Assembly: GCA_964019135.1 (NCBI GenBank)
Contig: OZ025255.1
Location: 43,368,811 to 43,432,810 of the forward strand
From: Arenicola marina
Taxonomy: Eukaryota; Annelida; Polychaeta; Arenicolidae
Length of the DNA stretch: 64,000 nucleotides
Reading direction: 5' to 3'
Of this stretch, positions 35,401-62,400 are shown in pieces (the first letter of the stretch is position 1; each line of letters starts with the position of its first letter). The notes below the pieces were generated by a model. That model ran no database searches and was not told the origin of the DNA. It saw only the letters and a list, made by a program, of their open reading frames with translations. The position numbers and the translations under genes were made by a program.

Positions 35401-38400
35401 GAGGGGGAGGGGGTACCGCGAAAAACAACAACGATTGCTAAATGGAATGTGAATGCCTGCAACGATAGCAGAAACCGCTTCCCATAGGAATAGATTAATA
35501 ATAGTGCTACATAAAGCCTATATCGCTCAAGGGGATGCCCCCCCCCCCCGCCCCCACTGGAGTAACCGTCAAGCGGCACTTACGGCGAGACACTCGTCGA
35601 GGTAGTTGAAGACGGTGACTGGCAGGGCGATGGTCTCGCCCCTGATCACGGAGTAGGGCAGGGTATAGGAGAGGAAGAAGGGTTGGAAGGCGGTGACACG
35701 TGCCGGGGCTGCCACGCCCAACCCGGTCTCGCTATTGGTGCAGAAGGCGTTGGCCACCCACTCGGTGATGGTGTGGGGAAGTGTCTCCTTCAAGTCCTGC
35801 CGCCCAGAGTCACTGCAACAACGGATGGAGGAATGGAGGGATGGAAAGAGAGTCACTGCAACAACGGATGGAGGAATGGAGGGATGGAAACAGAGTCACT
35901 GCAACAACGGATGGAGGAATGGAAGGATGGAAACAGTCACTGCAACAACGGATGGAGGAATGGAGGGATGGAAACAGTCACTGCAACAACGGATGGAGGA
36001 ATGGAGGGATGGAAACAGTCACTGCAACAACGGATGGAGGAATGGAGGGATGGAAACAGTCACTGCAAAAACGGATGGAGGAATGGAGGGATGGAAACAG
36101 TCACTGCAAAAACGGATGGAGGAATGGAGGGATGGAAACAGTCATTGCAACAACGGATGGAGGAATGGAGGGATGGAAACAGTCATTGCAACAACGGAGG
36201 GAGGAATGGAGGGATGGAAACAGAGTCACTGCAACAACGGATGGAGGAATGGAGGGATGGAAACAGTCATTGCAACAACGGATGGAGGAATGGAGGGATG
36301 GAAACAGTCATTGCAACAACGGATGGAGGAATGGAGGGATGGAAACAGTCATTGCAACAACGTATGGAGGAATAGAGGGATGGAAACAGTCATTGCAACA
36401 ACGGGTGGAAGAATGGAGGAATGGAAACAGTCACTGCAACAACGGATGGAAGAATGGAGGGATGGAAACAGTCACTGCAACAACGGATGGAGGAATAGAG
36501 GGATAAAAACAGTCATTGCAACAACGGATAGAGGAATGGAGGAATGGAAACAGTCACTGCCACAACAGGTGGAGGAATGGAGGAATGGAAACAGTCACTG
36601 CAACAACGGATGGAGGAATGGAGGGATGGAAACAGTCATTGCAACAACGGATGGAGGAATAGAGGGATGGAAACAGTCATTGCAACAACGGATGGAGGAA
36701 TGGAGGGATGGAAACAGTCACTGCAACAACGGATGGAGGAATGGAGGAATGGAAACAGTCACTGCAACAACGGATGGAGGAATGGAGGGATGGAAACAGT
36801 CATTGCAACAACGGATGGAGGAATGGAGGGATGGAAACAGTCATTGCAACAACGGATGGAGGAATGGAGGGATGGAAACAGTCATTGCAACAACGTATGG
36901 AGGAATGGAGGGATGGAAACAGTCATTGCAACAACGGATGGAGGAATGGAGGGATGGAAACAGTCATTGCAACAACGGATGGAGGAATGGAGGGATGGAA
37001 ACAGTCATTGCAACAACGGATGGAGGAATGGAGGAATGGAAACAGTCACTGCCGCAACAGGTGGAGGAATGGAGGAATGGAAACAGTCACTGCAACAACG
37101 GATGGAAGAATGGAGGGATGGAAACAGTCATTGCAACAACGGATGGAGGAATGGAAACAGTCATTGCAACAACGGATGGAGGAATGAAGGGATGGAAACA
37201 GTCACTGCAACAACGGATGGAGGAATGGAGGAATGGAAACAGTCACTGCCACAACAGCTGGAGGAATGGAGGAATGGAAACAGTCACTGCAACAACGGAT
37301 GGAAGAATGGAGGGATGGAAACAGTCATTGCAACAACGAATGGAGGAATGGAGGGATGGAAACAGTCACTGCAACAACGGATGGAGCAATGGAAACAGTC
37401 ACTGCCACAACGGATGGAGCAATGGAAACAGTCACTGCAACAACGGATGGAGGAATGGAGGGACGGAAACAGTCACTGCAACAACGGATGGAGCAATGGA
37501 AACAGTCACTGCAACAAGGGATGGAGGAATAGAGGGATGGAAACAGTCACTGCAACAAGGGATGGAGGAATAGAGGGATGGAAACAGTCACTGCAACAAC
37601 GGATGGAGGAATGGAGGGATGGAAACAGAGTCACTGCAACAACGGATGGAAGAATGGAAACAGTCACTGCCACAACAGGTGGAGGAATGGAGGAATGGAA
37701 ACAGTCACTGCAACAACGGATGGAGGAATGGAGGGATGGAAACAGTCACTGCAACAACGGGTGGAAGAATGGAGGAATGGAAACAGTCACTGCAACAACG
37801 GATGGAGGAATGGAGGGATGGAAACAGTCACTGCAACAACGGATGGAGGAATAGAGGGATAAAAACAGTCACTGCAACAACGGATGGAGGAATGGAGGGA
37901 TGGAAACAGTCACTGCAACAACGGATGGAGGAATGGAGGGATGGAAACAGTCACTGCAACAACGGATGGAAGAATGGAGGGATGGAAACAGTCACTGGAA
38001 CAACGGATGGAGGAATGGAAACAGTCACTGCAACAACGGATGGAGGAATGGAGGGATGGAAACAGTCACTGCAACAACGGATGGAGGAATGGAAGGATGG
38101 AAACAGTCACTGCAACAACGGATAGAGGAATGGAGGGATGGAAACAGTCACTGCAACAACGGATGGAGGAATAGAGGAATGGAAACAGTCACTGCAACAA
38201 CGGATGGAGGAATGGAAACAGTCACTGCAACAACGGATGGAGGAATAGAGGGATGGAAACAGTCACTGCAACAACGGATGGAGGAATAGAGGGATGGAAA
38301 CAGTCACTGCAACAACGGATGGAGGAATGGAGGGATGGAAACAGTCACTGCAACAACGGATGGAGGAATAGAGGGATGGAAACAGTCACTGCAACAACGG

Positions 38401-41400: not shown

Positions 41401-44400
41401 ACTGCAACAACGGATGGAGGAATGGAAACAGTCACTGCAACAACGGATGGAGGAATGGAGAGATGGAAACAGTCACTGCAACAACGGATGGAGGAATGGA
41501 GGGATGGAAACAGTCACTGCAACAACGGATGGAGGAATGGAGGGACGGAAACAGTCACTGCAACAACGGATAGAGCAATGGAAACAGTCACTGCAACAAC
41601 GGATGGAGGAATGGAGGGATGGAAACAGTCACTGCAACAACGGGTGGAAGAATGGAGGAATGGAAACAGTCACTGCAACAACGAATGGAGGAATGGAGGG
41701 ATGGAAACAGTCACTGCAACAACGGATGGAGGAATAGAGGGATAAAAACAGTCACTGCAACAACGGAGGGAGGAATGGAGGGATGGAAACAGTCACTGCA
41801 ACAACGGATGGAGGAATGGAAGGATGGAAACAGTCACTGCAACAACGGATGGAGGAATAGAGGGATGGAAACAGTCACTGCAACAACGGATGGAGGAATG
41901 GAGGGATGGAAACAGTCACTGCAACAACGGATGGAGGAATGGAGGGATGGAAACAGTCACTGCAACAACGGATGGAGGAATGGAGGGATGGAAACAGTCA
42001 TTGCAACAACGGATGGAGGAATGGAAACAGTCACTGCCACAACAGGTGGGAGAATGGAGGAATGGAAAGTCACTGCAACAACGGATGGAAGAATGGAGGG
42101 ATGGAAACAGTCATTGCAACAACGGATGGAGGAATGGAGGGATGGAAACAGTCATTGCAACAACGGATGGAGGAATGGAGGGATGGAAACAGTCACTGCA
42201 ACAACGGATGGAGGAATTGAGAAATGGAAACAGCCACTGCCACAACAGGTGGAGGAATGGAGGAATGGAAACAGTCACTGCAACAACGGATGGAAGAATG
42301 GAGGGATGGAAACAGTCATTGCAACAACGGATGGAGGAATGGAGGGATGGAAACAGTCATTGCAACAACGGATGGAGGAATGGAGAGATGGAAACAGTCA
42401 CTGCAACAACGGATGGAGCAATGGAAACAGTCACTGCAACAACGGATGGAGGAATGGAGAGATGGAAACAGTCACTGCAACAACGGATGGAGCAATGGAA
42501 ACAGTCACTGCAACAACGGATGGAGCAATGGAAACCGTCACTGCAACAACGGATGGAGGAATGGAGAGATGGAAACAGTCACTGCAACAACGGATGGAGG
42601 AATGGAGGGATGGAAACAGTCACTGCAACAACGGATGGAGGAATGGAGGGACGGAAACAGTCACTGCAACAACGGATGGAGGAATGGAAGGATGGAAACA
42701 GTCACTGCAACAACGGATGGAGGAATGGAGGGATGGAAACAGTCACTGCAACAACGGGTGGAAGAATGGAGGAATGGAAACAGTCACTGCAACAACGGAT
42801 GGAGGAATGGAGGGATGGAAACAGTCACTGCAACAACGGATGGAGGAATAGAGGGATAAAAACAGTCACTGCAACAACGGATGGAGGAATGGAGGGATGG
42901 AAACAGTCACTGCAACAACGGATGGAGGAATGGAGGGATGGAAACAGTCACTGCAACAACGGATGGAAGAATGGAGGGATGGAAACAGTCACTGGAACAA
43001 CGGAATGGAAACAGTCACTGCAACAACGGATAGAGGAATGGAGGAATGGAGGGATGGAAACAGTCACTGCAACAACGGATGGAGGAATGGAGGGATGAAA
43101 ACAGTCACTGCAACAACGGATGGAGGAATAGAGGGATGGAAACAGTCACTGCAACAACGGATGGAGGAATGGAGGGATGGAAACAGTCACTGCAACAACG
43201 GATGGAGGAATGGAGGGATGGAAACAGTCACTGCAACAACGGATGGAGGAATGGAGGGTTGGAAACAGTCACTGCAACAACGGATGGAGGAATGGAAACA
43301 GTCACTGCAACAACGGATGGAGGAATGGAGGAATGGAGGGATGGAAACAGTCACTGCAACAACGGATGGAGGAATGGAAGGATGGAAACAGTCACTGCAA
43401 CAACGGATGGAGGAATGGAGGGATGGAAACAGTCACTGCAACAACGGATGGAGGAATAGAGGGATGGAAACAGTCACTGCAACAACGGATGGAGGAATGG
43501 AGGGATGGAAACAGTCATTGCAACAACGGATGGAGGAATGGAGGGATGGAAACAGTCATTGCAACAACGGATGGAGGATGTCTTAGGCCATCTTTGTGAA
43601 CACCCCAAAGGGTGTCTGCGTCCAGAGCAAAATTCAAAATAGCTGCCGGTGGAAATCAGAGGGAGGCCCTTTAGGCCATATTTGCGCCCACGATGGGTAA
43701 AACCTCTCGCGACAACGAAATGCGTGGTGGCATGGTTCGAACCATTGATCTGCCGCTCCGCCAGCTTAGCAGCAGAGATTGGGCGCTTCTTTTGGCATCT
43801 CGCACAGCCTCATTTATAATTATTACAATAAAGAATTTTTATTCAAATAAAAAATAACAAAATAATTAAGAATAAAGTAACAAATCCGCTTAACAGTTAT
43901 CTTTTCCTTTGTAAAATTCAAATAACAAAGCTTTCTGCAAAAACAATTTTCAAAACAACATGTGACAAATTACCCACTGTAATTTAAATAATCGATTAAC
44001 TGACATATGGTATATATAGTGCATTGGTTCTAGTGCGACAAGGGTTTATCTCGACATGATATTTGTGCGGAGATAAAGCCATTTGGGACGAGAAGGAATG
44101 TCACATGCATTTTGTCGCACGAGTCCCAGTCAAATTAAACCCTGGAGCGGTGATAATCGAATGTGCCACGGCCTTACCGAATATCGAATATCGGCAAACC
44201 ATACTTACCCGATGCTAATCAGGTCCCACAACCATGTCTCCGGGAAGAACGCTCGCAATTCCACCTGTTTGCTGCCAGATGGTCCTTCGACATCTTCTAT
44301 TTCCTTACTAACTTCGCCTTGGGATGGGGCCGATGCACCTGTGGGAACGCCAGCGTCTAGGTCAACAGATCAAACTAGATTTTGTTGTTGTTAATAAAAA

Positions 44401-47400
44401 ATCTATATTTATTTACTATCGAAACAATATTACAAAATCAAAGCATCATTAGGACATAGCGATAAATGTATAGCATGTTTATATATAGCTAACAATACTT
44501 AGTACATTTGTTGTACATAATTATTTAATAATTTCTTCTTATATATAAGTGTAGATGTAGACTACACTTCAATTAAGTATGTCGAAAACTGCACAGAAGT
44601 AACTTATTAATGGTAAAACGACTGGAGTTTGTGTCTTCCTTCTTAATGGGTTATACGCTGAATCACATTGCACATTAGATTAATATATAAAAATACATGA
44701 GTAATGAGCATCATCATTATATGCACTTGACATGACATTAAGACGAAGACGGTTGGTTGGAGAGTTGGCATTTTAACTATAAAATGACATTATATCGCGT
44801 CAATGGGAATAAAAGTGCGATGGTAGAGCGGACCTATGTCGTCGGGACAATCGTTTAAGAAGGAGGACATATTTATCAGACATAAATACATGCAGGCCTA
44901 CTTGTGAGGGGCAAATGTATCCAAGCGACATTTCCAATGTAATCGCGGTACATGGAGATCGCTTTGCATATTAAATAGTCCCTTGTATGAAATTCGAGAT
45001 TCAAGATTCAAAAACATTTATTCGTCAAAAATATTTAATTGTATACATGAGTGAACATAAAAGGAAAGGTAAACACCACTTTGACGCAATAGACTAATTT
45101 TGGTTAAAGACCGCTATAATCAGGGGCCACCGGTATGACCGGACATAACGACTATAGACTATATACAAACACAGCCCATGGTACTGTGTAGCGAAGGGTA
45201 CTGTGTAGCGAATGGTACTGTGTAGCGAATGGTACTAATGGTACTGTGTAGCGAATGGTACTGTGTAGCGAAGGATAAGTGTGTAGCGAATGGTACTGTG
45301 TAGCGAATGGCACACTGTAACGAATGTTAAGTGTGCAACGAATGGTACTGCGTAGGTGGTGCTGCCTACTATGCCGCATGGAACGCTAACAAGAACGTCG
45401 TCACTACTTCACGTAACAGCGCATGCAAGTAGCCAAGACACATGCCATTTAAAAAACGAACGCGGATATGAGGCATAAAGAACGATGTCATAGGCCGAGT
45501 GACCGGAAGAAGCCACAGCACGCACGCGCAGCTTGACCTCTGTCCGGGCGTTCAACTTGAAGGTCGCGTGGAAGCAACAGGTTGGGGCGGGGGTGGGTGG
45601 GTGGGGTAGGTTACCCACCAGATTTACACGAATTTGAATTAAAAAAAGGACGACACGATCGCAACGTATCACAGCTTGGTTTCCAATGCAACATCCGACA
45701 ACGCCATACCCACCCACTCACTAGCTGGGGCGGCAGACACACAAGACGGCTCGGGGCACCGCATTCCCGTAGCAACTAGCTTGAAATGTTGCCGAGCATC
45801 GCCAAAGCACGGCGTTGTGATGAAAGTAGCGTCGGTGGTTGTTGTGGTTGGTTAACCCGGTCTCATACAATGGGGTCTCCGATACACGACCGCAAATATA
45901 CGCCAAGAGCGCAAAGGGGTGCATGGTCGGTTCTGTTATACACTGCCACACAAGGGATTCGAACCAATGACATATAAAACCCTTATAACAAAAGCACAGG
46001 AATCTTGTAGGCAGGCTACGCAAGGTACGCATTAAGCGCTATAGAAGATAAATGCAGTCAGTCTGCTGATATCATCAATATCATTGGCGGAAGCATAATC
46101 TTGATAGAGGAAGACCTGATCCCTTATTGGGAGGTGACTAATTTACCAAAAATGTTGTTGACGTGACCAAAGATATGGGAAAGAAAGACGATACTGAAGA
46201 GGAGCAGTCAACCCACAAAGCCCTGCAGTATCACAAATATCACAAATTCGTTGTGACGCCTGTCAAACATATCTTTATCGTAGAGATCGACAGACACAGG
46301 GCTGTACTGTCTGGAGGGTGCCGCCTGTCAAACAGATCTTTATAGTAGAGATCAACAGACACAGGGCTGTACAGTCTGGAGGGTGCCGCCTGTCAAACAG
46401 ATCTTTATAGTAGAGATCGACAGACACAGGGCTGTACAGTCTGGAGGGTGCCGCCTGTCAAACAGATCTTTATCGTAGATATCATGCCGTTTAGTATCAA
46501 GACGATTGAGACTTTTTTCTGATTTGTTCTCCAAGTTGTTTTCCAAGGTGACATCTGCCATTCACATTCTTGGTCGTACGCGGTAGCTGGCGTGGTCGTG
46601 CCCGATCGTCCCTACCTGGGAGGCTTGCGAGGTACATTACTGGATATCTGCAGGGACGGGTCTCCATGGTGACGTCACTTAGCACCACAAGGCGAACATC
46701 CTGTGTTAAGGTTAAGGACAACTCACTTACACAGGTACTAAATAACAACAGCATAGATGATGTCTTGGAGAGGGCGGAATGAGGACTTGGTGGATGGAGT
46801 GAGGTCTTGGTGGCTGGTGTGGGGTCTTGGTGGCTGGATTGGGATCTCGGGGGAGTGATGTGAGGTCTTGGTGGCTGGAATGGGGTCTTGATGGCTGGAG
46901 TGGGGTCTTGATGGTTGGAGTGGGGTCTCGGGGGAGTGGTGTGAGGTCTTGGTGGATGGAGTGGGGTCTTGGTGGCTGGAGTGGGGTCTTGATGGTTGGA
47001 GTGGGGTCTTGGTGGCTAGAGTGGGGTCTCGGGGGAATGGTGTGAGGTCTTGGTGGATGGAGTGGGGTCTTGGTGGCTGAAGTGGGGTCTTGGTGGATGG
47101 AGTGGGGTCTTGGTGGATGGTATGGGGTCTTGGTGCCTGAAGTGGGGTCTCGGGGGAGTGATGTGAGGTCTTGGTGGCTGGAGTGGGGTCTGGTTGGGTA
47201 GGTGGGATCTGGGTCGCTGGAGTGATATGAAGTCACTCGTAACAGGAACTCATACCAGCAATGACGACACAATCCAATATCAAGACATCAATCAATCCAG
47301 AAAGTACCAATGACGTCACACTACAATATAAAGATATCAATCATGCCAGGAAACCAAGAGCAGCAATAACGTCACAGTCCAATATCATGACGTCACTCGT

Positions 47401-50400
47401 GACAGGAACGAATACCAGCAATGACGTCACACTCCAATATGAAGACGTCATTCGTGACAGGAACTCATACCAGCAATGACGACACACTACAATAAAAAGA
47501 GATTAATCATGCCAGGAAACTAAGAGCAGCAATGACGTCACAACCAGCCACCGCATATCCGATAACCTAACCGAAGTTCTGGCCGCAAACAACCAATGCG
47601 CCATCATAGCGGAGCGACACCATCACTATCAGACAGGGCATGGAATGAACTGTTTGGTGTTTTGGGCCACATTTGAAACACACGAAGGCAAATTGGGCCC
47701 AGACACATCCCGGGACAATACAATGGGGTTGGATGAAACAGGCCTCAGATGCCGGAGCCGGGGCGCGAACCCACGAACTGTGGGTCCGCAGCTCGGGTCG
47801 CTAAGTCATTGAGCCTATCATGCACGGACACGACCCCAGGTCATGACGTCATAATGAAGTCACATGGGAGCCGTGTTATGACGTAATAATGAAGTAACAT
47901 GGGAGCCGTCTCATGACGTCATAATGAAGTCAGATGGAAGCCGTGTCATGACGTCATCATGAAGTCACATCGGAGCCGTTTCATGGCGTCATAATGAAGT
48001 AACATGGGACCGTGTCATGACATCATAATGAACTCACAAAGGAGCCGTGTCATGACGTCATAATGAATTCACATGGGAGCCGTGTTATGACGTCATAATA
48101 AACGCGCAAGCGAGCCGTGTCATGACATAATAAATTCACATAGGTGCCATGTCATGATGTCATAATGAAGTCACATGGGAGCCGTGTCATGACGTAATAA
48201 TGAAGTCACAAGAGAGCCGTGTCATGACGTCAGAAGGGATTTACATGAGGGCTATGTCACGACGTCAGAAGGGAGCCGTGATATTTCAACCCTCAACGCC
48301 CTATATGACATATATGTGTAACCAGATATAACCAGGAGGCTAATCATAATTAGAAAGTCGTGCTCTTTGGGTACGTGCCTTGACTGCGCAGTATTTACTC
48401 CGCTAATGCGTTTCAAATGAAGATAACCTAACGTGTCGCCTCCGAGCGTGGTGATGAAGGGGACAGTGGAGGAAGTGTGTGGTGATGGGGCGGGTCGGTA
48501 GGGACGTTAGACGTGGGGGTCGCAGGGGCACGGATGGCGTCAGAGAAGTGTGACTAGAAGGAAGGGCTGTTAGGAGCACCTATTCAAACAGACCTGGCAG
48601 CCCCATGGGTCCATCCTGTCCACCTCTAGGGGGAGAGTAGTAAACCAGGTTCTGTCTCGTGCACGGCCGGGTCTGCACTGTGACGTCAGAGAGGACCAAC
48701 ATGCCGGCGTTCTGCGGTAACAAAATGGGTCAGTGTTCAGCTAGAGCGCCTTGTGGGTAACGAGCGTAATGCGGTCAACCAGCGACCCCGCCACGTTGAC
48801 CTGGACGAAAATAGTCCGGTTGCGTAGTGATTCTATCCATACAAAGGAACCACGTTGTCTCCAGTGTGAAGAACTGCAACGGCAAGCAAGGAGGGGCCCT
48901 CAAAAGTCGAGCACTCTAGCACTCCAGCTGAGGGTAGTGAGTGTTCGACCACTGCGCGGCGCGGTTGGCAACTTCCGGTGGCCTGATCCTGAAGGTGAAG
49001 GTCGCTAAGTCGGGCAGAAGACACATGGTTGACACACGCCAAGTGCGCTGCCGCCATCGCCTTGGTAACGGTTACAACGGAGCTATGTGTTGGGGGCACT
49101 GAGGAGAGATAAAAAGCGCGGCGGACAGCGACACACAAACATCGGTTCACTTGATCGCGTCGTCGTCTGTCGCAAAGTAGACACTGTGTGTAGAAGACAT
49201 GTGATTAAGTGTGTGAGGGGAGGGTGCTGGGTGGAGGTGGGGGTGCGGTGAGCCGCGCTGGTTCTTCTTTTCCAACAGGTCAATGGCTTCTGCCCCCACC
49301 TGGTGCCATGGCGACGTTGTCTCTGAAGATCATACCCGGCATCGCGCCCATGAGCGGGGAATCAACCATGATCGAGTCAAACATGGGATGTCTGCAGGGC
49401 CGGGTCTCCATGGTAACGTCGGTCAGAGTGAACACGCCGGCCTCCTGTGTAGAAACAGGCCGTATTGCTTTATGTAACACACAGCTGAAATCACAAGGTC
49501 ATTCGCCAAGGTCAGACTCGGCGCCGGGGCCGGCCCCGGATAGTACGGACACCAGTCACCAGGGCGCAGGGCAGTCGCAGAGGACCCGCCGGCTCTAGCT
49601 CCACTCTCATCCCCGAATGTCGCTCGCCAGGGAGCGCGCCGACGGCGGCTTTTCTCAGCCAGCTTCCGGACGATAGATGGGTGTTTTGGTGAGCTACCCT
49701 AAGTCCGCACACATGTGGGGCAATAAGGTGAATACCACAGGAAGCACTCCCTAGCGACGCCGGGAATCGAACCCAACCCAATCCAAACTCCTCGCGCTAC
49801 CCACTGAGCTACCAGGCTTCCCCCAGCCTGTGATCGACCCGATGCTTTGAGGCATTGTTTGTGAGGAGGCGAAACAAACGGGACCCACGGTTAACGCGAC
49901 ACTCGCCAAGGCAGGCGAGGACACACGTGACAACACCAGGACAACACGTGACACAAAGGACATGGGGACGGGTAAACGGGCCGTCATCATTCCGTCTAGG
50001 CCAACATCGAACACACATGCACAGCTAAGTCCCGACCACAGACACCGTGCTCCACCGAAAGGGAGGAACGGGGAGTGGGGGGGGGGGGGCGAGAGAAGGG
50101 AGAGAGAGCGGTTACCTACCCCGGGAACCCGGCGAGCTCTTCCTTCTAAGGAAGGTACGCTCATACATGACCCGGGGATGCCTGCAGGGCCTGGTGCTCA
50201 GGATCAAGTCACTCAGCACCACGACGCCCTCCTCCTGCGCAGCCCAGCCAGCACCAGCAAGAAAACAACAACGTCATACATACACACAGTCTGGAGGGTG
50301 CCGCCTGTCAAACAGATCTTTATAGTAGAGATCGACAGACACGGGGCTGTACTGTCTGGAGGGTGCCGCCTGTCAAACAGATTTCTATAGTAGAGATCGA

Positions 50401-53400
50401 CAGACACAGAGCTGTACAGTCTGGAGGGTGCCGCCTGTCAAACAGATCTTTATAGTAGAGATCGACAGACACGGGGCTGTACTGTCTGGAGGGTGCCGCC
50501 TGTCAAACAGATCTTTATAGTAGAGATCGACAGACACGGGGCTGTACTGTCTGGGGGTTGCCGCCTATCAAACAGATCTTTATAGTAGAGATCGACAGAC
50601 ACCGGGCTGTACAGTCTGGAGGGTGCCGCCTGTCAAACAGATCTTTATAGTAGAGATCGACAGACACGGGGCTGTACTGTCTGGAGGGTGCCGCCTGTCA
50701 AACATATCTTTATAGTAGAGATCGACAGACACAGGGCTGTACAGTCTGGAGGGTGCCGCCTGTCAAACAGATCTTTATAGTAGAGATCGACAGACACGGG
50801 GCTGTACTGTCTGGAGGGTGCCGCCTGTCAAACAGATCTTTATAGTAGAGATCGACAGACACGGGGCTGTACAGTCTGGAGGGTGCCGCCTGTCAAACAG
50901 ATCTTTATAGTAGAGATCGACAGACACGGGGCTGTACTGTCTGGAGGGTGCCGCCTGTCAAACATATCTTTATAGTAGAGATCGACAGACACAGGGCTGT
51001 ACTCTCTGGAGAGTGCCGCCTGTCAAACAGATCTTTATAGTAGAGATCGACAGACACAGGACTGTACAGTCTGGAGGGTGCCGCCTGTCAAACAGATCTT
51101 TATAGTAGAGATCGACAGACACAGGGCTGTACTGTCTGGAGGGTGCCGCCTGTCAAACAGATCTTTATAGTAGAGATCGACAGACAGGGTTGTACAGTCT
51201 GGAGGGTGCCGCCTGTCAAACAGATCTTTATAGTAGAGATCGACAGACACAGGGCTGTACAGTCTGGAGGGTGCCGCCTGTCAAACAGATCTTTATAGTA
51301 GAGATCGACAGACACAGGGCTGTACAGTCTGGAGGGTGCCGCCTGTCAAACAGATCTTTATAGTAGAGATCGACAGACACCGGGCTGTACTGTCTGGAGA
51401 GTGCCGCCTGTCAAACAGATCTTTATAGTAGAGATCGACAGACACCGGGCTGTACTGTCTGGAGGGTGCCGCCTGTCAAACAGATCTTTATAGTAGAGAT
51501 CGACAGACACCGGGCTGTACTGTCTGGAGGGTGCCGCCTGTCAAACAGATCTTTATAGTAGAGATCGACAGACACCGGGCTGTACAGTCTGGAGGGTGCC
51601 GCCTGTCAAACAGATCTTTATAGTAGAGATCGACAGACACGGGGCTGTACAGTCTGGAGGGTGCCGCCTGTCAAACAGATTATTATAGTAGAGATCGACA
51701 GATACGGGGCTGTACAGTCTGGAGGGTGCCGCCTGTCAAACAGATCTTTATAGTAGAGATCGACAGACACGGGGCTGTACTGTCTGGAGGGTGCCGCCTG
51801 TCAAACAGATCTTTATAGTAGAGATCGACAGACACGGGGCTGTACAGTCTGGAGGGTGCCGCCTGTCAAACATATCTTTATAGCAGAGATCGACAGACAC
51901 GGGGCTGTACAGTCTGGAGGGTGCCGCCTGTCAAACAGATCTTTATAGTAGAGATCGACAGACACAGGGCTGTACTGTCTGGAGGGTGCCGCCTGTCAAA
52001 CAGACCTTTATAGTAGAGATCGACAGACACAGGGCTCTACTGTCTGGAGGGTGCCGCCTGTCAAACATATCTTTATAGTAGAGATCGACAGACACAGGGC
52101 TGTACAGTCTGGAGGGTGCCGCCTGTCAAACAGATCTTTATAGTAGAGATCGACAGACACGGGGCTGTACTGTCTGGAGGGTGCCGCCTGTCAAACAGAT
52201 CTTTATAGTAGAGATCGACAGACACGGGGCTGTACTGTCTGGAGGGTGCCGCCTGTCAAACAGATCTTTATAGTAGAGATCGACAGACACCGGGCTGTAC
52301 TGTCTGGAGGGTGCCGCCTGTCAAACAGATCTTTATAGTAGAGATCGACAGACACAAGGCTGTACAGTCTGGAGGGTGCCGCCTGTCAAACAGATCTTTA
52401 TAGTAGAGATCGACAGACACGGGGCTGTACTGTCTGGAGGGTGCCGCCTGTCAAACAGATCTTTATAGTAGAGATCGACAGACACGGGGCTGTACTGTCT
52501 GGAGGGTGCCGCCTGTCAAACAGATCTTTATAGTAGAGATCGACAGACACGGGGCTGTACTGTCTGGAGGGTGCCGCCTGTCAAACATATCTTTATAGTA
52601 GAGATCGACAGACACAGGGCTGTACTCTCTGGAGAGTGCCGCCTGTCAAACAGATCTTTATAGTAGAAATCGACAGACACAGGGCTGTACAGTCTGGAGG
52701 GTGCCGCCTGTCAAACAGATCTTTATAGTAGAGATCGACAGACACAGGGCTGTACTGTCTGGAGGGTGCCGCCTGTCAAACAGATCTTTATAGTAGAGAT
52801 CGACAGACACAGGGCTGTACAGTCTGGAGGGTGCCGCCTGTCAAACAGATCTTTATAGTAGAGATCGACAGACACAGGGCTGTACAGTCTGGAGGGTGCC
52901 GCCTGTCAAACAGATCTTTATAGTAGAGATCGACAGACACAGGGCTGTACAGTCTGGAGGGTGCCGCCTGTCAAACAGATCTTTATAGTAGAGATCGACA
53001 GACACCGGGCTGTACTGTCTGGAGAGTGCCGCCTGTCAAACAGATCTTTATAGTAGAGATCGACAGACACCGGGCTGTACTGTCTGGAGGGTGCCGCCTG
53101 TCAAACAGATCTTTATAGTAGAGATCGACAGACACCGGGCTGTACTGTCTGGAGGGTGCCGCCTGTCAAACAGATCTTTATAGTAGAGATCGACAGACAC
53201 CGGGCTGTACAGTCTGGAGGGTGCCGCCTGTCAAACAGATCTTTATAGTAGAGATCGACAGACACGGGGCTGTACAGTCTGGAGGGTGCCGCCTGTCAAA
53301 CAGATCTTTATAGTAGAGATCGACAGACACGGGGCTGTACTGTCTGGAGGGTGCCGCCTGTCAAACAGATCTTTATAGTAGAGATCGAAAGACACCGGGC

Positions 53401-56400
53401 TGTACAGTCTGGAGGGTGCCGCCTGTCAAACAGATCTTTATAGTAGAGATCGACAGACACGGGGCTGTACAGTCTGGAGGGTGCCGCCTGTCAAACAGAT
53501 TTTTATAGTAGAGATCGACAGACACAGGGCTGTACTGTCTGGAGGGTGCCGCCTGTCAAACAGATCTTTATAGTAGAGATCGACAGACACCGGGCTGTAC
53601 TGTCTGGAGGGTGCCGCCTGTCAAACAGATCTTTATAGTAGAGATCGACAGACACAGGGCTGTACAGTCTGGAGGGTGCCGCCTGTCAAACAGATCTTTA
53701 TAGTAGAGATCGACAGACACAGGGCTGTACTGTCTGGAGGGTGCCGCCTGTCAAACAGATCTTTATAGTAGAGATCGACAGACACCGGGCTGTACTGTCT
53801 GGAGGGTGCCGCCTGTCAAACAGATCTTTATAGTAGAGATCGACAGACACAGGGCTGTACAGTCTGGAGGGTGCCGCCTGTCAAACAGATCTTTATAGTA
53901 GAGATCGACAGACACAGGGCTGTACTGTCTGGAGGGTGCCGCCTGTCAAACAGATCTTTATAGTAGAGATCGACAGACACAGGGCTGTACAGTCTGGAGG
54001 GTGCCGCCTGTCAAACAGATCTTTATAGTAGAGATCGACAGACACAGGGCTGTACAGTCTGGAGGGTGCCGCCTGTCAAACAGATCTTTATAGTAGAGAT
54101 CGACAGACACCGGGCTGTACTGTCTGGAGAGTGCCGCCTGTCAAACAGATCTTTATAGTAGAGATCGACAGACACCGGGCTGTACTGTCTGGAGGGTGCC
54201 GCCTGTCAAACAGATCTTTATAGTAGAGATCGACAGACACCGGGCTGTACTGTCTGGAGGGTGCCGCCTGTCAAACAGATCTTTATAGTAGAGATCGACA
54301 GACACCGGGCTGTACAGTCTGGAGGGTGCCGCCTGTCAAACAGATCTTTATAATAGAGATCGACAGACACGGGGCTGTACAGTCTGGAGGGTGCCGCCTG
54401 TCAAACAGATCTTTATAGTAGAGATCGACAGATACGGGGCTGTACAGTCTGGAGGGTGCCGCCTGTCAAACAGATCTTTATCGTAGACATCATGCCGTTT
54501 AGTATCAAGACGATTGAGATTTTTTCTGATTTGTTCTCCAAGTTACAGGTGACATCTGCCATTCGCATTCTTGGTCGGATGTGGTAGCTGGCGTGCAGCA
54601 TTCTTGGTCGGATGTGGTAGCTGGCGTGCAGCATTCTTGGTCGGATGCGGTAGCTGGCGTGCAGCATTCTTGGTCGGATGCGGTAGCTGGCGTGCAGCAT
54701 TCTTGGTCGGATGTGGTAGCTGGCGTGCAGCATTCTTGGTCGGATGCGGTAGCTGGCGTGCAGCATTCTTGGTCGGATGCGGTAGCTGGCGTGCAGCATT
54801 CTTGGTCGGATGTGGTAGCTGGCGTGCAGCATTCTTGGTCGGATGTGGTAGCTGGCGTGCAGCATTCTTGGTCGGATGTGGTAGCTGGCGTGCAGCATTC
54901 TTGGTCGGATGCGGTAGCTGGCGTGCAGCATTCTTGGTCGGATGTGGTAGCTGGCGTGCAGCATTCTTGGTCGGATGCGGTAGCTGGCGTGCAGCATTCT
55001 TGGTCGGATGTGGTAGCTGGCGTGCAGCATTCTTGGTCGGATGCGGTAGCTGGCGTGCAGCATTCTTGGTCGGATGTGGTAGCTGGCGTGCAGCATTCTT
55101 GGTCGGATGTGGTAGCTGGCGTGCAGCATTCTTGGTCGGATGTGGTAGCTGGCGTGCAGTCACATGCACTATCTCGTCGTGCCCGATCGTACCTACCTGG
55201 GAGGCTTGCGAGGTACATTACTGGATATTTGCAGGGACGGGTCTCCATGGAGACGTCACTTAGCACCACAAGGCGAACATCCTGCGTTAAGGTTAAGGAC
55301 AACTCACTCACACAGGTACTAAGTAACAACAACAGAGATGATGTCTTGGAGAGGGCGGAATGAGGACTTGGTGGATGGAGTGAGGTCTTGGTGGCTGGAG
55401 TGGGGTCTTGGTGGATGAAGTGGGGTCTTGGTGGCTGGAGTTGGGTCTTGGTGGCTGGAGTTGGGTCTTGGTGGATGGAGTGGGGTCTTGGTGGCTGGAG
55501 TTGGGTCTTGGTGGCTGGAGTGGGGTCTTGGTGGCTGGAGTTGGGTCTTGGTGGCTGGAGTTGGGTCTTGGTGGCTGGAGTTGGGTCTTGGAGGCTGGAG
55601 TTGGGTCTTGGTGGATGGAGTGGGGTCTTGGTGGCTGGAGTTGGGTCTTGGTGGCTGGAGTGGGGCCTGGTTGGGTGGCTGGAGTGGGGTCTGGTTGGGT
55701 GGCTGGAGTGGGGCCTGGTTGGGTGGCTGGAGTGGGGCCTGGTTGGGTGGCTGGAGTGGGGTCTGGTTGGGTGGCTGGAGTGGGGCCTGGTTGGGTGGCT
55801 GGAGTGGGGTCTGGTTGGGTGGCTGGAGTGGGGTCTGGTTGGGTGGCTGGAGTGGGGTCTGGTTGGGTGGCTGGAGTGGGGTCTGGTTGGGTGGCTGGAG
55901 TGGGGTCTGGTTGGGTGGCTGGAGTGGGGTCTGGTTGGGTGGCTGGAGTGGGGTCTGGTTGGGTGGCTGGAGTGGGGTCTGGTTGGGTGGCTGGAGTGGG
56001 GTCTTGGTGGCTGGAGTGGGGCCTGGTTGGGTGGCTGGAGTGGGGCCTGGTTGGGTGGCTGGAGTGGGGTCTGGTTGGGTGGCTGGAGTGGGGTCTGGTT
56101 GGGTGGCTGGAGTGGGGTCTGGTTGGGTGGCTGGAGTGGGGTCTGGTTGGGTGGCTGGAGTGGGGTCTGGTTGGGTGGCTGGAGTGGGGTCTGGTTGGGT
56201 GGCTGGAGTGGGGTCTGGTTGGGTGGCTGGAGTGGGGTCTGGTTGGGTGGCTGGAGTGGGGTCTGGTTGGGTGGCTGGAGTGGGGTCTGGTTGGGTGGCT
56301 GGAGTGGGGTCTGGTTGGGTGGCTGGAGTGGGGTCTGGTTGGGTGGCTGGAGTGGGGCCTGGTTGGGTGGCTGGAGTGGGGTCTGGTTGGGTGGCTGGAG

Positions 56401-59400
56401 TGGGGTCTGGTTGGGTGGCTGGAGTGGGGTCTTGGTGGCTGGAGTGGGGTCTTGGTGGCTGGAGTGGGGCCTGGTTGGGTGGCTGGAGTGGGGTCTGGTT
56501 GGGTGGCTGGAGTGGGGTCTGGTTGGGTGGCTGGAGTGGGGTCTTGGTGGCTGGAGTGGGGTCTTGGTGGCTGGAGTGGGGCCTGGTTGGGTGGCTGGAG
56601 TGGGGTCTGGTTGGGTGGCTGGAGTGGGGTCTGGTTGGGTGGCTGGAGTGGGGTCTTGGTGGCTGGAGTGGGGCCTGGTTGGGTGGCTGAAGTGGGGTCT
56701 GGTTGGGTGGCTGGAGTGGGGTCTTGGTGGCTGGAGTGGGGTCTGGTTGGGTGGCTGGAGTGGGGTCTGGTTGGGTGGCTGGAGTGGGGTCTGGTTGGGT
56801 GGCTGGAGTGGGGCCTGGTTGGGTGGCTGGAGTGGGGTCTTGGTGGCTGGAGTGGGGTCTGGTTGGGTGGCTGGAGTGGGGCCTGGTTGGGTGGCTGGAG
56901 TGGGGTCTGGTTGGGTGGCTGGAGTGGGGTCTTGGTGGCTGGAGTGGGGTCTGGTTGGGTGGCTGGAGTGGGGTCTTGGTGGCTGGAGTGGGGTCTGGTT
57001 GGGTGGCTGGAGTGGGGTCTTGGTGGCTGGAGTGGGGCCTGGTTGGGTGGCTGGAGTGGGGTCTGGTTGGGTGGCTGGAGTGGGGTCTGGTTGGGTGGCT
57101 GGAGTGGGGTCTGGTTGGGTGGCTGGAGTGGGGTCTGGTTGGGTGGCTGGAGTGGGGTCTTGGTGGCTGGAGTGGGGCCTGGTTGGGTGGCTGGAGTGGG
57201 GCCTGGTTGGGTGGCTGGAGTGGGGTCTTGGTGGCTGGAGTGGGGCCTGGTTGGGTGGCTGGAGTGGGGCCTGGTTGGGTGGCTGGAGTGGGGCCTGGTT
57301 GGGTGGCTGGAGTGGGGTCTGGTTGGGTGGCTGGAGTGGGGCCTGGTTGGGTGGCTGGAGTGGGGTCTTGGTGGCTGGAGTGGGGTCTGGTTGGGTGGCT
57401 GGAGTGGGGTCTGGTTGGGTAGCTGGAGTGGGGTCTTGGTGGCTGGAGTGGGGTCTGGTTGGGTGGCTGGAGTGGGGTCTGGTTGGGTGGCTGGAGTGGG
57501 GTCTGGTTGGGTGGCTGGAGTGGGGTCTGGTTGGGTGGCTGGAGTGGGGCCTGGTTGGGTGGCTGGAGTGGGGTCTGGTTGGGTGGCTGGAGTGGGGTCT
57601 GGTTGGGTGGCTGGAGTGGGGTCTGGTTGGGTGGCTGGAGTGGGGTCTTGGTGGCTGGAGTGGGGCCTGGTTGGGTGGCTGGAGTGGGGTCTGGTTGGGT
57701 GGCTGGAGTGGGGTCTGGTTGGGTGGCTGGAGTGGGGCCTGGTTGGGTGGCTGGAGTGGGGTCTGGTTGGGTGGCTGGAGTGGGGTCTGGTTGGGTGGCT
57801 GGAGTGGGTTCTGGTTGGGTGGCTGGAGTGGGGTCTGGTTGGGTGGCTGGAGTGGGGCCTGGTTGGGTGGCTGGAGTGGGGTCTGGTTGGGTGGCTGGAG
57901 TGGGGTCTGGTTGGGTGGCTGGAGTGGGGTCTGGTTGGGTGGCTGGAGTGGGGTCTGGTTGGGTGGCTGGAGTGGGGTCTTGGTGGCTGGAGTGGGGTCT
58001 GGTTGGGTGGCTGGAGTGGGGTCTTGGTGGCTGGAGTGGGGTCTGGTTGGGTGGCTGGAGTGGGGTCTTGGTGGCTGGAGTGGGGTCTGGTTGGGTGGCT
58101 GGAGTGGGGTCTTGGTGGCTAGAGTGGGGTCTGGTTGGGTGGCTGGAGTGGGGTCTGGTTGGGTGGCTGGAGTGGGGTCTGGTTGGGTGGCTGGAGTGGG
58201 GTCTGGTTGGGTGGCTGGAGTGGGGTCTGGTTGGGTGGCTGGAGTGGGGTCTGGTTGGGTGGCTGGAGTGGGGTCTTGGTGGCTGGAGTGGGGTCTGGTT
58301 GGGTGGCTGGAGTGGGGTCTTGGTGGCTGGAGTGGGGTCTGGTTGGGTGGCTGGAGTGGGGTCTTGGTGGCTGGAGTGGGGTCTGGTTGGGTGGCTGGAG
58401 TGGGGCCTGGTTGGGTGGCTGGAGTGGGGTCTGGTTGGGTGGCTGGAGTGGGGTCTTGGTGGCTGGAGTGGGGTCTGGTTGGGTGGCTGGAGTGGGGTCT
58501 TGGTGGCTGGAGTGGGGTCTGGTTGGGTGGCTGGAGTGGGGTCTTGGTGGCTGGAGTGGGGTCTGGTTGGGTGGCTGGAGTGATATCAAGACGTAACTCG
58601 TGACAGGAACTCATATCAACAGCAATGACGTCACAACCAGCCACCGCATATCCGATAACCTAACCGAAGTTCTGGCCGCAAACAACCAATGCGCCATCAT
58701 AGCGGAGCGACACCATCACTATCAGACAGGGCATGGAATGAACTGTTTGGTGTTTTGGGCCACATTTGAAACACACGAGGGCAAATTGGGCCCAGACACA
58801 TCCCGGGACAATACAATGGGGTTGGATGAAACAGGCCTCAGATGCCGGAGCCGGGGCGCGAACCCACGAACTGTGGGTCCGCAGCTCGGGTCGCTAAGTC
58901 ATTGAGCCTATCATGCACGGACACGACCCCAGGTCATGACGTCATAATGAAGTCACATGGGTTAGGAGCAGAAGCCGGGGCGCGAACCCACGAACTGTGG
59001 GTACAATCTTGAGAACATTTTTTATGTGAAGGGAACATTTACCGTTACTGTTGGGACAATATTATGGGATCAATGCTAAGCTTATTTTAATTTGTCTACC
59101 TTCGTGCAAATCTAAATCTATAGATAATGTGGGGCAACAAATGTCCTAATTTACAATGTATCGTGTGGAAGGTATGGCAGACTCATTACAGACAATGTTT
59201 CAAAAAAAATCAGAAAACTGGTCTACATTGACCATTGAATGCATTGATCTATTAAATGCAACAACATTTCGAATTCAGAACGAACAATAAATTTCATGTA
59301 TTAAATTGATTTCTTAACAACATGTCACACTTTTTCTGCACCTGGTCTCATGTAAACATATTTTGGCTGGAGGCTAACGACAAGGACGTCGTGCTCCTTG

Positions 59401-62400
59401 GGTTCGTGCCTAGACTGCGCCGTATCAACTCAGCTAATGCGTTTTAAATTAAGACAACTTAACGTGTCGCCTCCGAGCGTGGTGATGAAGGGGACAGTGG
59501 AGGAAGTGTGTGGTGTTGGCTGGTTGGTTGTATATTCAGGCCGCTTGAAACACTTTTGGTCATATCGCGTCAATAGGAGAAGGAAGAGAGAGTGGAGCCA
59601 TGTCCCCAGGGGGAAACCCCCTACTCTTTGCGAGGAAGGACATGGGATCTTTATGCTGCGACCACATAGACATGGCCACAGCGGGGCTCGTTAGGCTCTC
59701 AGGTGGCCAGAGCACTCAATGCGAGCGCTCGAGCCCACTGGGCTATCGGGCCGGCCCCTGTGGTGATGGGGCGGGTCGGTAGGGACGTTAGACGTGGGGG
59801 TCGCAGGGGCACGGATGGCGTCAGAGAAGTGTGACTAGAAGGAAGGGCTGCTAGGAGCACCTATTCAAACAGACCTGGCCGCGCCATGGCTCCCTCCTGT
59901 CCATGCGAGTTGTCAAAGTGCCTAGGGCTAGGGAGAGAGTAGTAAACCCGGTACCGTCTCGTGCACGGCCGGGTCTGCACTGTGACGTCAGAGAGGACCA
60001 ACATGCCGGCGTTCTGCGGTAACAAAATGCGTCAGTGTTTAGCTAGAGCGCCTTGTGGGTAACGAGCGTAATGCGGTCAACCAGCGACCCCGCCACGTTG
60101 ACCTGGACGAAAATAGTCCGGTTGCGTAGTGATTTTATCGTTACATAGGAACCACGTTGTCTCCAGTGTGAAGAACTGCAACGGCAAGCAAGGAGGGGCC
60201 CTCAAAAGTCGAGCGATCCACCACTCCAGCTGAGGGGAGTGAGTGTTCGACCACTGCGCGGCGCAGTTGGCAACTTCCGGTGGCCTGATCCTGAAGGTGA
60301 AAGTCGCTAAGTCGGGCAGAAGACACATGGTTGACACACGCCAAGTGCGCTGCCGCCATCGCCTTGGTAACGGTTACAACGGAGCTATGTGTTGGGGGCA
60401 CTGAGGAGAGATAAAAGAGCGGCGGACAGCGACACACAAACATCGGTTCACTTGATCGCGTCGTCGTCTGTCGCAAAGTAGACACTGTGTGTAGAAGACA
60501 TGTGATTAAGTGTGTGAGGGGAGCGTGCTGGGTGGAGGTGGGGGTGGGGTGAGCCGCGCTGGTTCTTTTTTCCCAACAGGTCAATGGTTTCTGCCCCCAC
60601 CTGGTGCCATGGCGACGTTGTCTCTGAAGATCATACCCGGCATCGCGCCCATGAGCGGGGAATCAACCATGATCGAGTCAAACATGGGATGTCTGCAGGG
60701 CCGGGTCTCCATGGTAACGTCGGTCAGAGTGAACACGCCGGCCTCCTGTGTAGAAACAGGCCGTATTGCTTTATGTAACACACAGCTGAAATCACAAGGT
60801 CATTCGCCAAGGTCAGACTCGGCGCCGGGGCCGGCCCCGGATAGTACGGACACCAGTCACCAGGGCGCAGGGCAGTCGCAGAGGACCCGCCGGCTCTAGC
60901 TCCACTCTCATCCCCGAATGTCGCTCGCCAGGGAGCGCGCCGACGGCGGCTTTTCTCAGCCAGCTTCCGGACGATAGATGGGTGTTTTGGTGAGCTACCC
61001 TAAGTCCGCACACATGTGGGGCAATAAGGTGAATACCACAGGAAGCACTCCCTAGCGACGCCGGGAATCGAACCCAACCCAATCCAAACTCCTCGCGCTA
61101 CCCACTGAGCTACCAGGCTTCCCCCAGCCTGTGATCGACCCGATGCTTTGAGGCATTGTTTGTGAGGAGGCGAAACAAACGGGACCCACGGTTAACGCGA
61201 CACTCGCCAAGGCAGGCGAGGACACACGTGACAACACCAGGGCAACACGTGACACAAAGGTAAACGGGCCGTCATCATTCCGTCTAGGCCAACATCGAAC
61301 ACACATGCACAGCTAAGTCCCGACCACAGACACCGTGCTCCACCGAAAGGGAGGAACGGGGAGTGGTGGGGGGGGGGGAGAAGGGAGAGAGAGCGGTTAC
61401 CTACCCCGGGAACCCGGCGAGTTCTTCCTTCTAAGGAAGGTACGCTCATACATGACCCGGGGGTGCCTGCAGGGCCTGGTGCTCAGGATCAAGTCACTCA
61501 GCACCACGACGCCCTCCTCCTGCGCAGCCCAGCCAGCACCAGCAAGAAAACAACAACGTCACACAACGCGGGCCACCAGTGACGTCACGTGGACGCGGTG
61601 GGTTAGGGGAGGCGTAGGGGGTGGGGGTGGGGAAGCGGGCCCTGGATGGGGAATACCTAGCCCCAGTTCCGTGGCTGCAGGACGGGCAAAAATCTGATAG
61701 GTCCCGTCAGATTTTTGCCCGCCCTACAGCCACGGAACGGGGCTAGGGAACACCTAGGTACCATCATCAGATCGTATAATAGTCACTACTCTACACGCTG
61801 TTGCCATTACATGTCAATCGTTTGGACTATAATGCGTCAGGCATCGGGGGTCGTGACGTCACAATGATAGATTCAACGTATACCATCATCAGGTGACCAT
61901 TTTGGTCTAACATGAGGTAATATTAGTAAACTGCTATTATTAACAACTATTAGTAAGCAACATTGTCATATATACCCTATATAGTTAAAGAGTGTATCCA
62001 CCCAGTATTACTTGAAATGGTTATCCACTTGCTCAGAGTTATAAATATACTAATCAACGCCATATTACTTTATTATCCATTCGTCTCACTTCAAATACGT
62101 GCCTCAATGTCATGTTGCCTCATCGTTCATTGGAACACTCTGCTGTTCAACGCCAACTATCTACTTCGATCCGTTTCACTTCAAATACCAAATCCACGTT
62201 ATAGCACCTCATGATTTATTTTAATAGTTTTACTTCAAATATGCAAAAACCTTAAATACTTTATGCTATAGCATATTACCTTAGTATCAACTTCAATAAA
62301 CTTTCACTAAAAATACGCCATGTTACCGTATGATGCATTTTGACCGCCGCTGAACGTACCGTGAAGGCGTGGATCGCGTCGTAGTAGTCCGAATACGAGG

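What the first reader, a model, noticed from the sequence alone, without database searches (positions are those of the whole stretch)
46616..61519. Eight phase-locked alternative bait exons in an A2M/TEP gene, in two tandem four-exon cassettes
Seen: eight - strand exons with good acceptors and donors (b1-b8), each 1 mod 3 in length (115, 145, 139, 85, 115, 145, 118, 85 nt), each starting in phase 0 and ending in phase 1. All share an LSD/LTD...TRPC framework followed by a different peptide. The exon before them ends in phase 0 and the exon after starts in phase 1, and none of the eight bridges two others without a frameshift. Known: in A2M the segment after this strand is the bait that proteases cut, and in some arthropod and bivalve TEPs this region varies by alternative splicing. 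Inference: a mutually exclusive bait cassette enforced by reading frame, giving at least five clearly different bait types (basic RRK, Met-rich, Tyr/GPMGL, Tyr/His, short hydrophobic).
Basis: partly seen in the sequence, partly recalled or inferred. Interest (0 to 1): 0.9.

Follow-up and report, generated by a model that had tools for sequence, protein, structure and literature searches.

The report
Swappable bait exons in macroglobulin gene
An animal alpha-2-macroglobulin gene, which makes a protein that traps protein-cutting enzymes, carries eight interchangeable exons for the bait those enzymes bite; this is a known kind of immune gene, here with a recently doubled set of exons in which one bait has changed far faster than the DNA around it.

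Summary
Eight - strand exons (115, 145, 139, 85, 115, 145, 118, 85 nt) have AG/GT borders, run from phase 0 to phase 1, and fit between exons 62490-62360 and 44338-44209. I modelled 18 invariant exons plus one bait exon. Each of the 8 single choices gives an open 856-876 aa frame; 0 of 247 multi-exon choices and 0 of 1 all-skipped choice do. The protein matches A2M/A2ML1 best, with TED, GCGEQ and receptor domain, and the exons lie where A2M has its bait.

The eight are four exons in two copies. Introns of the b1-b3 block differ at 1.7% of sites. b2 and b6 give identical peptides; b1/b5 and b4/b8 differ by one and two residues. The exception is b3/b7: its bait part differs at 11 of 64 sites, all amino-acid changing, plus a 21-nt in-frame gap (Fisher p 8e-8 against introns).

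Mutually exclusive bait exons are already published (snail BgTEP2: twelve over 30 kb; others in scallop, fly, shrimp, tick), so this is a new member of a known kind. Splicing itself is unobserved, no shared docking site was found, and a haplotype assembly artefact is not excluded for the second cassette.

The parts
62864..62954 (-). invariant exon (91 nt), second before the bait cassette; its 5' phase is set by the frame used
   Evidence: AG/GT borders and frame
62360..62490 (-). invariant exon before the bait exons, 131 nt, phase 1 to 0
61405..61519 (-). bait exon b1, 115 nt; bait part basic ([21 protein letters not shown])
60601..60745 (-). bait exon b2, 145 nt; Met-rich
59875..60013 (-). 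bait exon b3, 139 nt; Tyr/His
55197..55281 (-). bait exon b4, 85 nt; short hydrophobic
50120..50234 (-). bait exon b5, copy of b1 (2 of 115 nt differ; one residue, N to S)
49300..49444 (-). bait exon b6, copy of b2 (145 of 145 nt identical)
48594..48711 (-). bait exon b7, copy of b3 with a diverged bait part (11 nonsynonymous changes, 21-nt in-frame gap; GPMGL type)
46616..46700 (-). bait exon b8, copy of b4 (two residues differ, both before the last 31 nt, which are identical)
44209..44338 (-). invariant exon after the bait exons, phase 1 to 2; rest of the bait and [14 protein letters not shown]
23856..35812 (-). 15 further invariant exons (A2M domain, TED with GCGEQ, receptor-binding domain): 35812-35584, 34448-34299, 33243-33148, 31791-31740, 31070-30984, 30412-30236, 29795-29587, 29088-28972, 28390-28231, 27814-27573, 26627-26418, 26053-25935, 25713-25623, 24681-24592, 23958-23856
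   Evidence: frame, borders and homology; C-terminal exon(s) below 23856 not resolved
59759..61565 (-). duplicated block, copy 1 (b1-b3 with introns)
   Evidence: 96.1% identical to copy 2 over 1824 columns
48478..50280 (-). duplicated block, copy 2 (b5-b7 with introns)

Best explanation
This is an alpha-2-macroglobulin-type gene with a cluster of mutually exclusive bait exons. A full-length product needs exactly one exon from the cluster. That exon gives the last strand before the bait (the LSD...TRPC framework) and the first part of the bait itself; the shared next exon gives the rest of the bait and the FPETWLW strand. Choosing another exon changes which proteases can cut the bait and so spring the trap, while the thioester and receptor domains stay the same. 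The cluster grew by tandem duplication of a four-exon cassette, after which one pair (b3/b7) diverged almost only in its bait part. Shown from sequence: borders, phases, open frames, domain family, duplication (in the assembly as given) and the focused b3/b7 divergence. Inferred: use in transcripts, exclusion at the splicing step, different protease targets, and diversifying selection as the cause.
For: Frame: 8 of 8 single choices open through 18 other exons, 0 of 248 other choices open. Family: Pfam TED_complement E 8.1e-96, A2M E 4.2e-28, A2M_recep E 5.6e-18; best solved relatives A2ML1 and A2M (571 bits each) over CD109 (416), TEP1 (251) and C3 (236). Position: the exon's Cys aligns with the Cys before the A2ML1 bait, and FPETWLWDL follows; a strand like AGVVVLSN lies before the bait in 46 of 73 prokaryotic stretches under a pattern made after seeing L001, without a chance control. 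Duplication and focused change: introns 24/1408 mismatches, b1/b5 2/115, b2/b6 0/145, b3 framework 0/54, b3/b7 bait part 11/64, 11 nonsynonymous and 0 synonymous at the two best gap placements, Fisher p 8e-8 against introns. Precedent for mutually exclusive bait exons: PMC7016707, passages read.
Against: No transcript data could be reached. The frameworks of b1-b4 differ by pooled pS 0.48 and pN 0.30, only moderate purifying selection, and in one of six pairs (b1/b4) pN 0.34 is not below pS 0.32. The fast change is seen in one pair only: b2/b6 is unchanged, b1/b5 has one amino-acid change, and the two changes of b4/b8 lie before its bait tail, which is identical. The b3/b7 pair and the cut after codon 18 were chosen by me after seeing the peptides. 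No docking site shared by all the exons was found. From the coordinates, introns between bait exons are 587 to 4962 nt and all borders are GT-AG, so neither steric blocking nor mixed splice-site types (both recalled mechanisms) explains exclusion; the splicing mechanism remains open.
Confidence: 0.85

Rival explanations
1. The second cassette is an assembly artefact: two haplotypes of one four-exon cassette were joined in series, so each chromosome has four bait exons, and b3/b7 are alleles.
For: Intron difference of 1.7% is within what outbred invertebrates show between alleles (recalled). The junction lies beside a 65-bp tandem array (50289-54491), a hard place to assemble.
Against: The block starts sharply 46 nt upstream of b1/b5, while the flanking exons 62490-62360 and 44338-44209 were each located once on the - strand. 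The copies differ by a 240-bp insertion present only in cassette 1 and by array lengths (for example 65-bp arrays of 64.7 and 3.6 copies). Divergence is patchy: the longest stretch between two mismatches is 654 positions (P 5e-5 against random placement), which fits gene conversion between neighbours; but alleles can also differ in these ways.
Confidence: 0.2
2. b3 and b7 differ because one of them received its bait part by gene conversion from another exon, not because of point changes under selection.
For: TEP genes are known for conversion (PMC2576239, passages). The change is confined to one segment.
Against: Neither tail has a donor elsewhere in the window at E 0.05; b7's tail still aligns weakly with b3's own tail (86% over 29 nt). 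A donor outside the window cannot be excluded.
Confidence: 0.3
3. Some of the eight are dead exons, and only one or a few are spliced.
For: No RNA evidence. b2/b6 and the bait tails of b4/b8 are redundant. Donors of the b2 and b3 types (gtgggg, gtctgt) are not the strongest.
Against: All eight are open and keep length 1 mod 3, even across the 21-nt difference. Their donor matches are 6-8 of 9, the same range as the other 18 exons of the model.
Confidence: 0.2
4. The exons are joined in series (several per transcript) as repeats.
For: None found.
Against: 0 of 247 multi-exon choices stay open.
Confidence: 0.02

Closest known systems
Biomphalaria glabrata BgTEP2 (PMC7016707, passages read)
   Same: Tandem mutually exclusive exons (12 over 30 kb) encoding the bait-like region, variable in length and sequence around conserved residues.
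   Different: [quoted passage not shown] here the conserved framework is at the N-terminal end, and the cluster is a doubled cassette.
Biomphalaria glabrata BgA2M (PMC7016707, passages read)
   Same: A2M gene with alternative bait exons.
   Different: Three variants, coded by one or two exons (17 and 18), against eight single exons here.
Chlamys farreri CfTEP, Drosophila Tep2, Fenneropenaeus chinensis A2M-2, tick A2Ms (as described in PMC7016707 and PMC7962413, passages read)
   Same: Bait or hypervariable region varied by alternative exons or splice variants (6 mutually exclusive exons, 5 isoforms, 6 variants, several variants).
   Different: Different lineages and counts; no cassette duplication is mentioned in the passages I read. 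The original papers were not opened.
Human A2ML1 / A2M (PDB 7q1y, 7von; named from recall as human, the call gives only molecule names)
   Same: Pre-bait Cys, FPETW after the bait, thioester GCGEQ, receptor domain.
   Different: I did not examine the human gene structure.

Membership tests
alpha-2-macroglobulin (A2M) subfamily | A2M, TED and receptor-binding domains | tested here: met
alpha-2-macroglobulin (A2M) subfamily | closer to A2M/A2ML1 than to CD109, TEP1 or C3 | tested here: met
   571 bits against 416, 251 and 236; no tree was built
alpha-2-macroglobulin (A2M) subfamily | intact thioester motif | tested here: met
   GCGEQ in exon 30412-30236
alpha-2-macroglobulin (A2M) subfamily | bait region cut by proteases, trapping activity | not testable with these tools
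   needs protein
alpha-2-macroglobulin (A2M) subfamily | N-terminal MG domains and signal peptide | not tested
   5' half of the gene lies beyond the window
mutually exclusive exon cluster | homologous tandem exons of the same phase class | tested here: met
mutually exclusive exon cluster | exactly one exon per open transcript | tested here: met
   8 of 8 singles, 0 of 248 others
mutually exclusive exon cluster | transcripts each with one of the exons | not testable with these tools
   no RNA data
mutually exclusive exon cluster with docking/selector RNA | one site able to pair beside every exon | tested here: inconclusive
   only two introns were scanned for the site; the candidate at 45.7 kb beats all 150 matched shuffles at 2 of 16 flanks, b2 and its copy b6 downstream

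The most novel reading that the evidence does not exclude
The bait repertoire of an invertebrate A2M grows by duplication of whole multi-exon cassettes inside one gene, followed by bait-only positive selection on single duplicate exons (b3/b7: 11 nonsynonymous, 0 synonymous and a 7-codon gap against 1.7% in the introns), while conversion keeps the rest of the cassette alike; this would be a readable birth-and-divergence engine for protease-trap specificity.
Probability: 0.45. Interest if true: 0.55.

Novelty: new member of a known kind. Interest (0 to 1): 0.42.

Why it matters
If transcripts confirm it, one gene makes several protease traps with different triggers and otherwise identical effector parts. 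The cassette duplication gives a clean comparison: nearly identical introns and frameworks beside one bait that has changed about ten times faster. That makes the question of what drives bait diversity testable with a few expressed variants.

Tried and rejected
Docking/selector RNA pairing as the cause of exclusion: in the first scan 3 of 4 combinations beat all 24 shuffles (the fourth did not, 11 of 24), at two places. One place is a self-overlap, because the upstream flank of b1 and the scanned intron both hold the hairpin near 61.7 kb. The other, at 45.7 kb, was checked against 300 other segments (mean -38.2, 1% point -49.7; 5 of 16 flanks were beyond it, but the controls were not matched for composition), then against matched shuffles: 2 of 16 flanks (b2 and its copy b6, downstream) beat all 150; b3 upstream is equalled by 3, b6 upstream by 7, b2 upstream by 8, and the other 11 flanks by 18 or more of 150. 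The site itself was picked as the best of its intron. No site shared by all exons.

A ninth, decayed bait exon near 45.71 kb ([13 protein letters not shown] then stop): noted by eye; E 0.042 as a lone peptide against a nominal 1950 pieces, 5.1 bits and E 0.45 in its own 260-aa piece. It was missing from the list because the whole piece failed the cut. By eye it has no acceptor in the right phase. Rejected as probable chance.

Tandem arrays tied to exon borders: of 11 arrays that I picked by hand from the listing between 23.7 and 44.4 kb, 6 hold an exon border, but circular shifts average 5.2 (P 0.43). Not an association. The 'whole exon inside' count printed comes from a faulty test and is not used.

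Rfam (0 matches at gathering scores in 43500-64000) and the tRNA scan (0) gave nothing. Viral contigs: 2 pattern matches, 0 relatives.

Literature: seven searches. One search (with 'exon duplication') found 0 papers. Of 8 listed I opened 4, of 2 both, of 1 that one, of 9 two, of 3 all, of 10 three. Seven papers in all, passages only.
Full report
Check of the observation. The eight exons are present as described. Each has an AG acceptor and a GT donor, a length of 1 mod 3, and an open frame that starts in phase 0 and ends in phase 1. The exon before them (62490-62360) ends in phase 0 and the exon after (44338-44209) starts in phase 1. To go beyond chance I modelled the rest of the gene in the window: one more exon upstream and fifteen more downstream, down to 23958-23856, with borders and phases that all agree. 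With any one of the eight bait exons the model is open for 856-876 aa. I then tried all 256 subsets: 8 of 8 singles are open, 0 of 247 larger sets and 0 of 1 empty set are open. A framework profile lists no further strong member in six frames of the window. It was built from six of the eight, and one search shows that it can miss weak domains, so only the absence of further strong members is informative.

What the gene is. Pfam finds the A2M domain, the TED domain and the receptor-binding domain; a fourth row, SVA, is below its curated cut-off. Among 59 matched distinct PDB sequences the best are A2ML1 and A2M at 571 bits, then CD109 at 416; another A2M entry has 356, TEP1 251 and C3 236. The thioester motif GCGEQ is intact. 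In the A2ML1 alignment the Cys of TRPC falls on the Cys just before the bait, and FPETWLWDL follows. In prokaryotic relatives fetched by the TED (80 loci kept of 105 relatives) a strand such as AGVVVLSN lies before the bait: 46 of the 73 stretches that could be read match a pattern that I made after seeing L001, with no chance control (a narrower pattern matched 4 of 74). So each alternative exon most likely starts at the last conserved strand before the bait, which explains why all eight repeat the framework, and runs into the bait. The end of the bait is in the shared exon.

How the cluster arose. Block 61565-59759 (b1-b3) and block 50280-48478 (b5-b7) are 96.1% identical. An intron stretch further on, 58961-58620 against 47868-47527, is 99.7% identical, while another, 59519-59351 against 48488-48317, is 84.3%. 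In the aligned block introns differ at 24 of 1408 sites, b1/b5 at 2 of 115, b2/b6 at 0 of 145 and the b3/b7 framework at 0 of 54 (gap columns left out: 17 in introns, 21 in b3). The b3/b7 bait part differs at 11 of 64 sites plus one 21-nt in-frame gap. All 11 changes are nonsynonymous, 0 synonymous, on about 47 and 16 sites, under either of the two best placements of the gap; the next placement gives 12.2 and 0.8. Fisher p against introns is 8e-8. I chose the pair and the cut after codon 18 after seeing the peptides. Outside that part the mismatches are clustered: the longest distance between two is 654 positions (P 5e-5 against random placement), which suggests a conversion tract. Cassette 1 has a 240-bp insertion between b3 and b4 that cassette 2 lacks, with a related copy at 13858-14113. 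Neither b3 nor b7 has a donor for its tail elsewhere in the window. Not every exon behaves so: b2/b6 is unchanged, b1/b5 has one amino-acid change, and b4/b8 has two, both before its tail, which is identical. The fast change is a property of one pair only. Among the four old exons the frameworks differ by pooled pS 0.48 and pN 0.30; in one of six pairs (b1/b4) pN is not below pS.

Mechanism. The reading frame guarantees that only one-exon transcripts encode the whole protein; others should be truncated. That does not show how splicing avoids them. From the coordinates, introns between bait exons are 587 to 4962 nt, too long for steric blocking (recalled mechanism), and all are GT-AG. I found no docking site shared by the exons; b2 and its copy b6 alone pair better than all matched shuffles with a site picked as the best of its intron. 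Protein-level effect, inferred: baits rich in Arg/Lys (b1/b5), Met and hydrophobic residues (b2/b6), Tyr/His (b3), Tyr and GPMGL (b7) or short hydrophobic (b4/b8) would be cut by different proteases.

Comparison with what is known. PMC7016707 (passages read) reports twelve mutually exclusive tandem exons in BgTEP2 over 30 kb, alternative bait exons in BgA2M and alternative cleavage-site exons in BgCD109, and cites five isoforms in Drosophila Tep2, six variants in shrimp A2M-2 and six mutually exclusive exons in scallop CfTEP. PMC7962413 (passages) describes tick A2M bait splice variants. PMC2685406 (passages) reports putative additional exons in Daphnia TEP2. [quoted passage not shown] PMC9363628 (passages) finds strain differences concentrated in the bait region of a snail A2M. 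In PMC6650032 and PMC12939704 the passages shown add no mutually exclusive bait exons. Hence: a new member of a known kind. The doubled cassette and the clean b3/b7 contrast are the parts I did not see in these passages. That is not a claim that they are absent from print: the library is open-access only, and only asked for exon duplication.

Limits. The host is unknown and no genome is held for it. No RNA could be examined. The 5' half and the last exon(s) of the gene are not modelled. A haplotype artefact for cassette 2 stays possible (about 0.2).

Noticed in passing
35808-43578: A 41-bp tandem array of about 194 copies repeats the acceptor and first five bases of exon 35812-35584; arrays at 23717-23866, 26587-27380 (82 bp, 100% matches), 28413-28985, 31981-33170 and 34408-35206 also hold a splice border. 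6 of 11 hand-picked arrays hold one, not more than circular shifts give (P 0.43).
   Followed up: partly
61770-61650: Long foldback (fold -92.7 kcal/mol for 136 nt) about 130 nt upstream of b1, outside the duplicated block.
   Followed up: partly
59759-59520: 240-bp insertion in cassette 1 with an empty site in cassette 2 and a related copy at 13858-14113; looks like a short interspersed element.
   Followed up: partly
61125-61000 and 49824-49699: tRNA-like promoter boxes (recalled motif) in the b1-b2 and b5-b6 introns, identical over 126 nt; the tRNA scan finds no tRNA.
   Followed up: no
29088-28972: The exon has VIHSDMKGG, whose His aligns with LLHTAMKGG of A2ML1; by recall this is the catalytic His place of C3, which would favour ester bonds to hydroxyl groups.
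   Followed up: no
L001-L080: A2M-like proteins of Chloroflexota, Planctomycetota, archaea and others are 45-54% identical (best segment) to this animal TED segment; many share the pre-bait strand and FPETW.
   Followed up: partly
5638-12871: 44-bp tandem array of about 164 copies below the modelled gene.
   Followed up: no
16106-15909: Translation SLLYGCETWTTY resembles the end of a non-LTR retrotransposon reverse transcriptase (recalled motif).
   Followed up: no
45715-45675: [13 protein letters not shown] followed by a stop resembles a bait framework but is not significant (E 0.45 in its piece).
   Followed up: yes
21500-23700: Possible C-terminal exons ([12 protein letters not shown]..., [19 protein letters not shown]) whose phases I could not join to exon 23958-23856.
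   Followed up: partly
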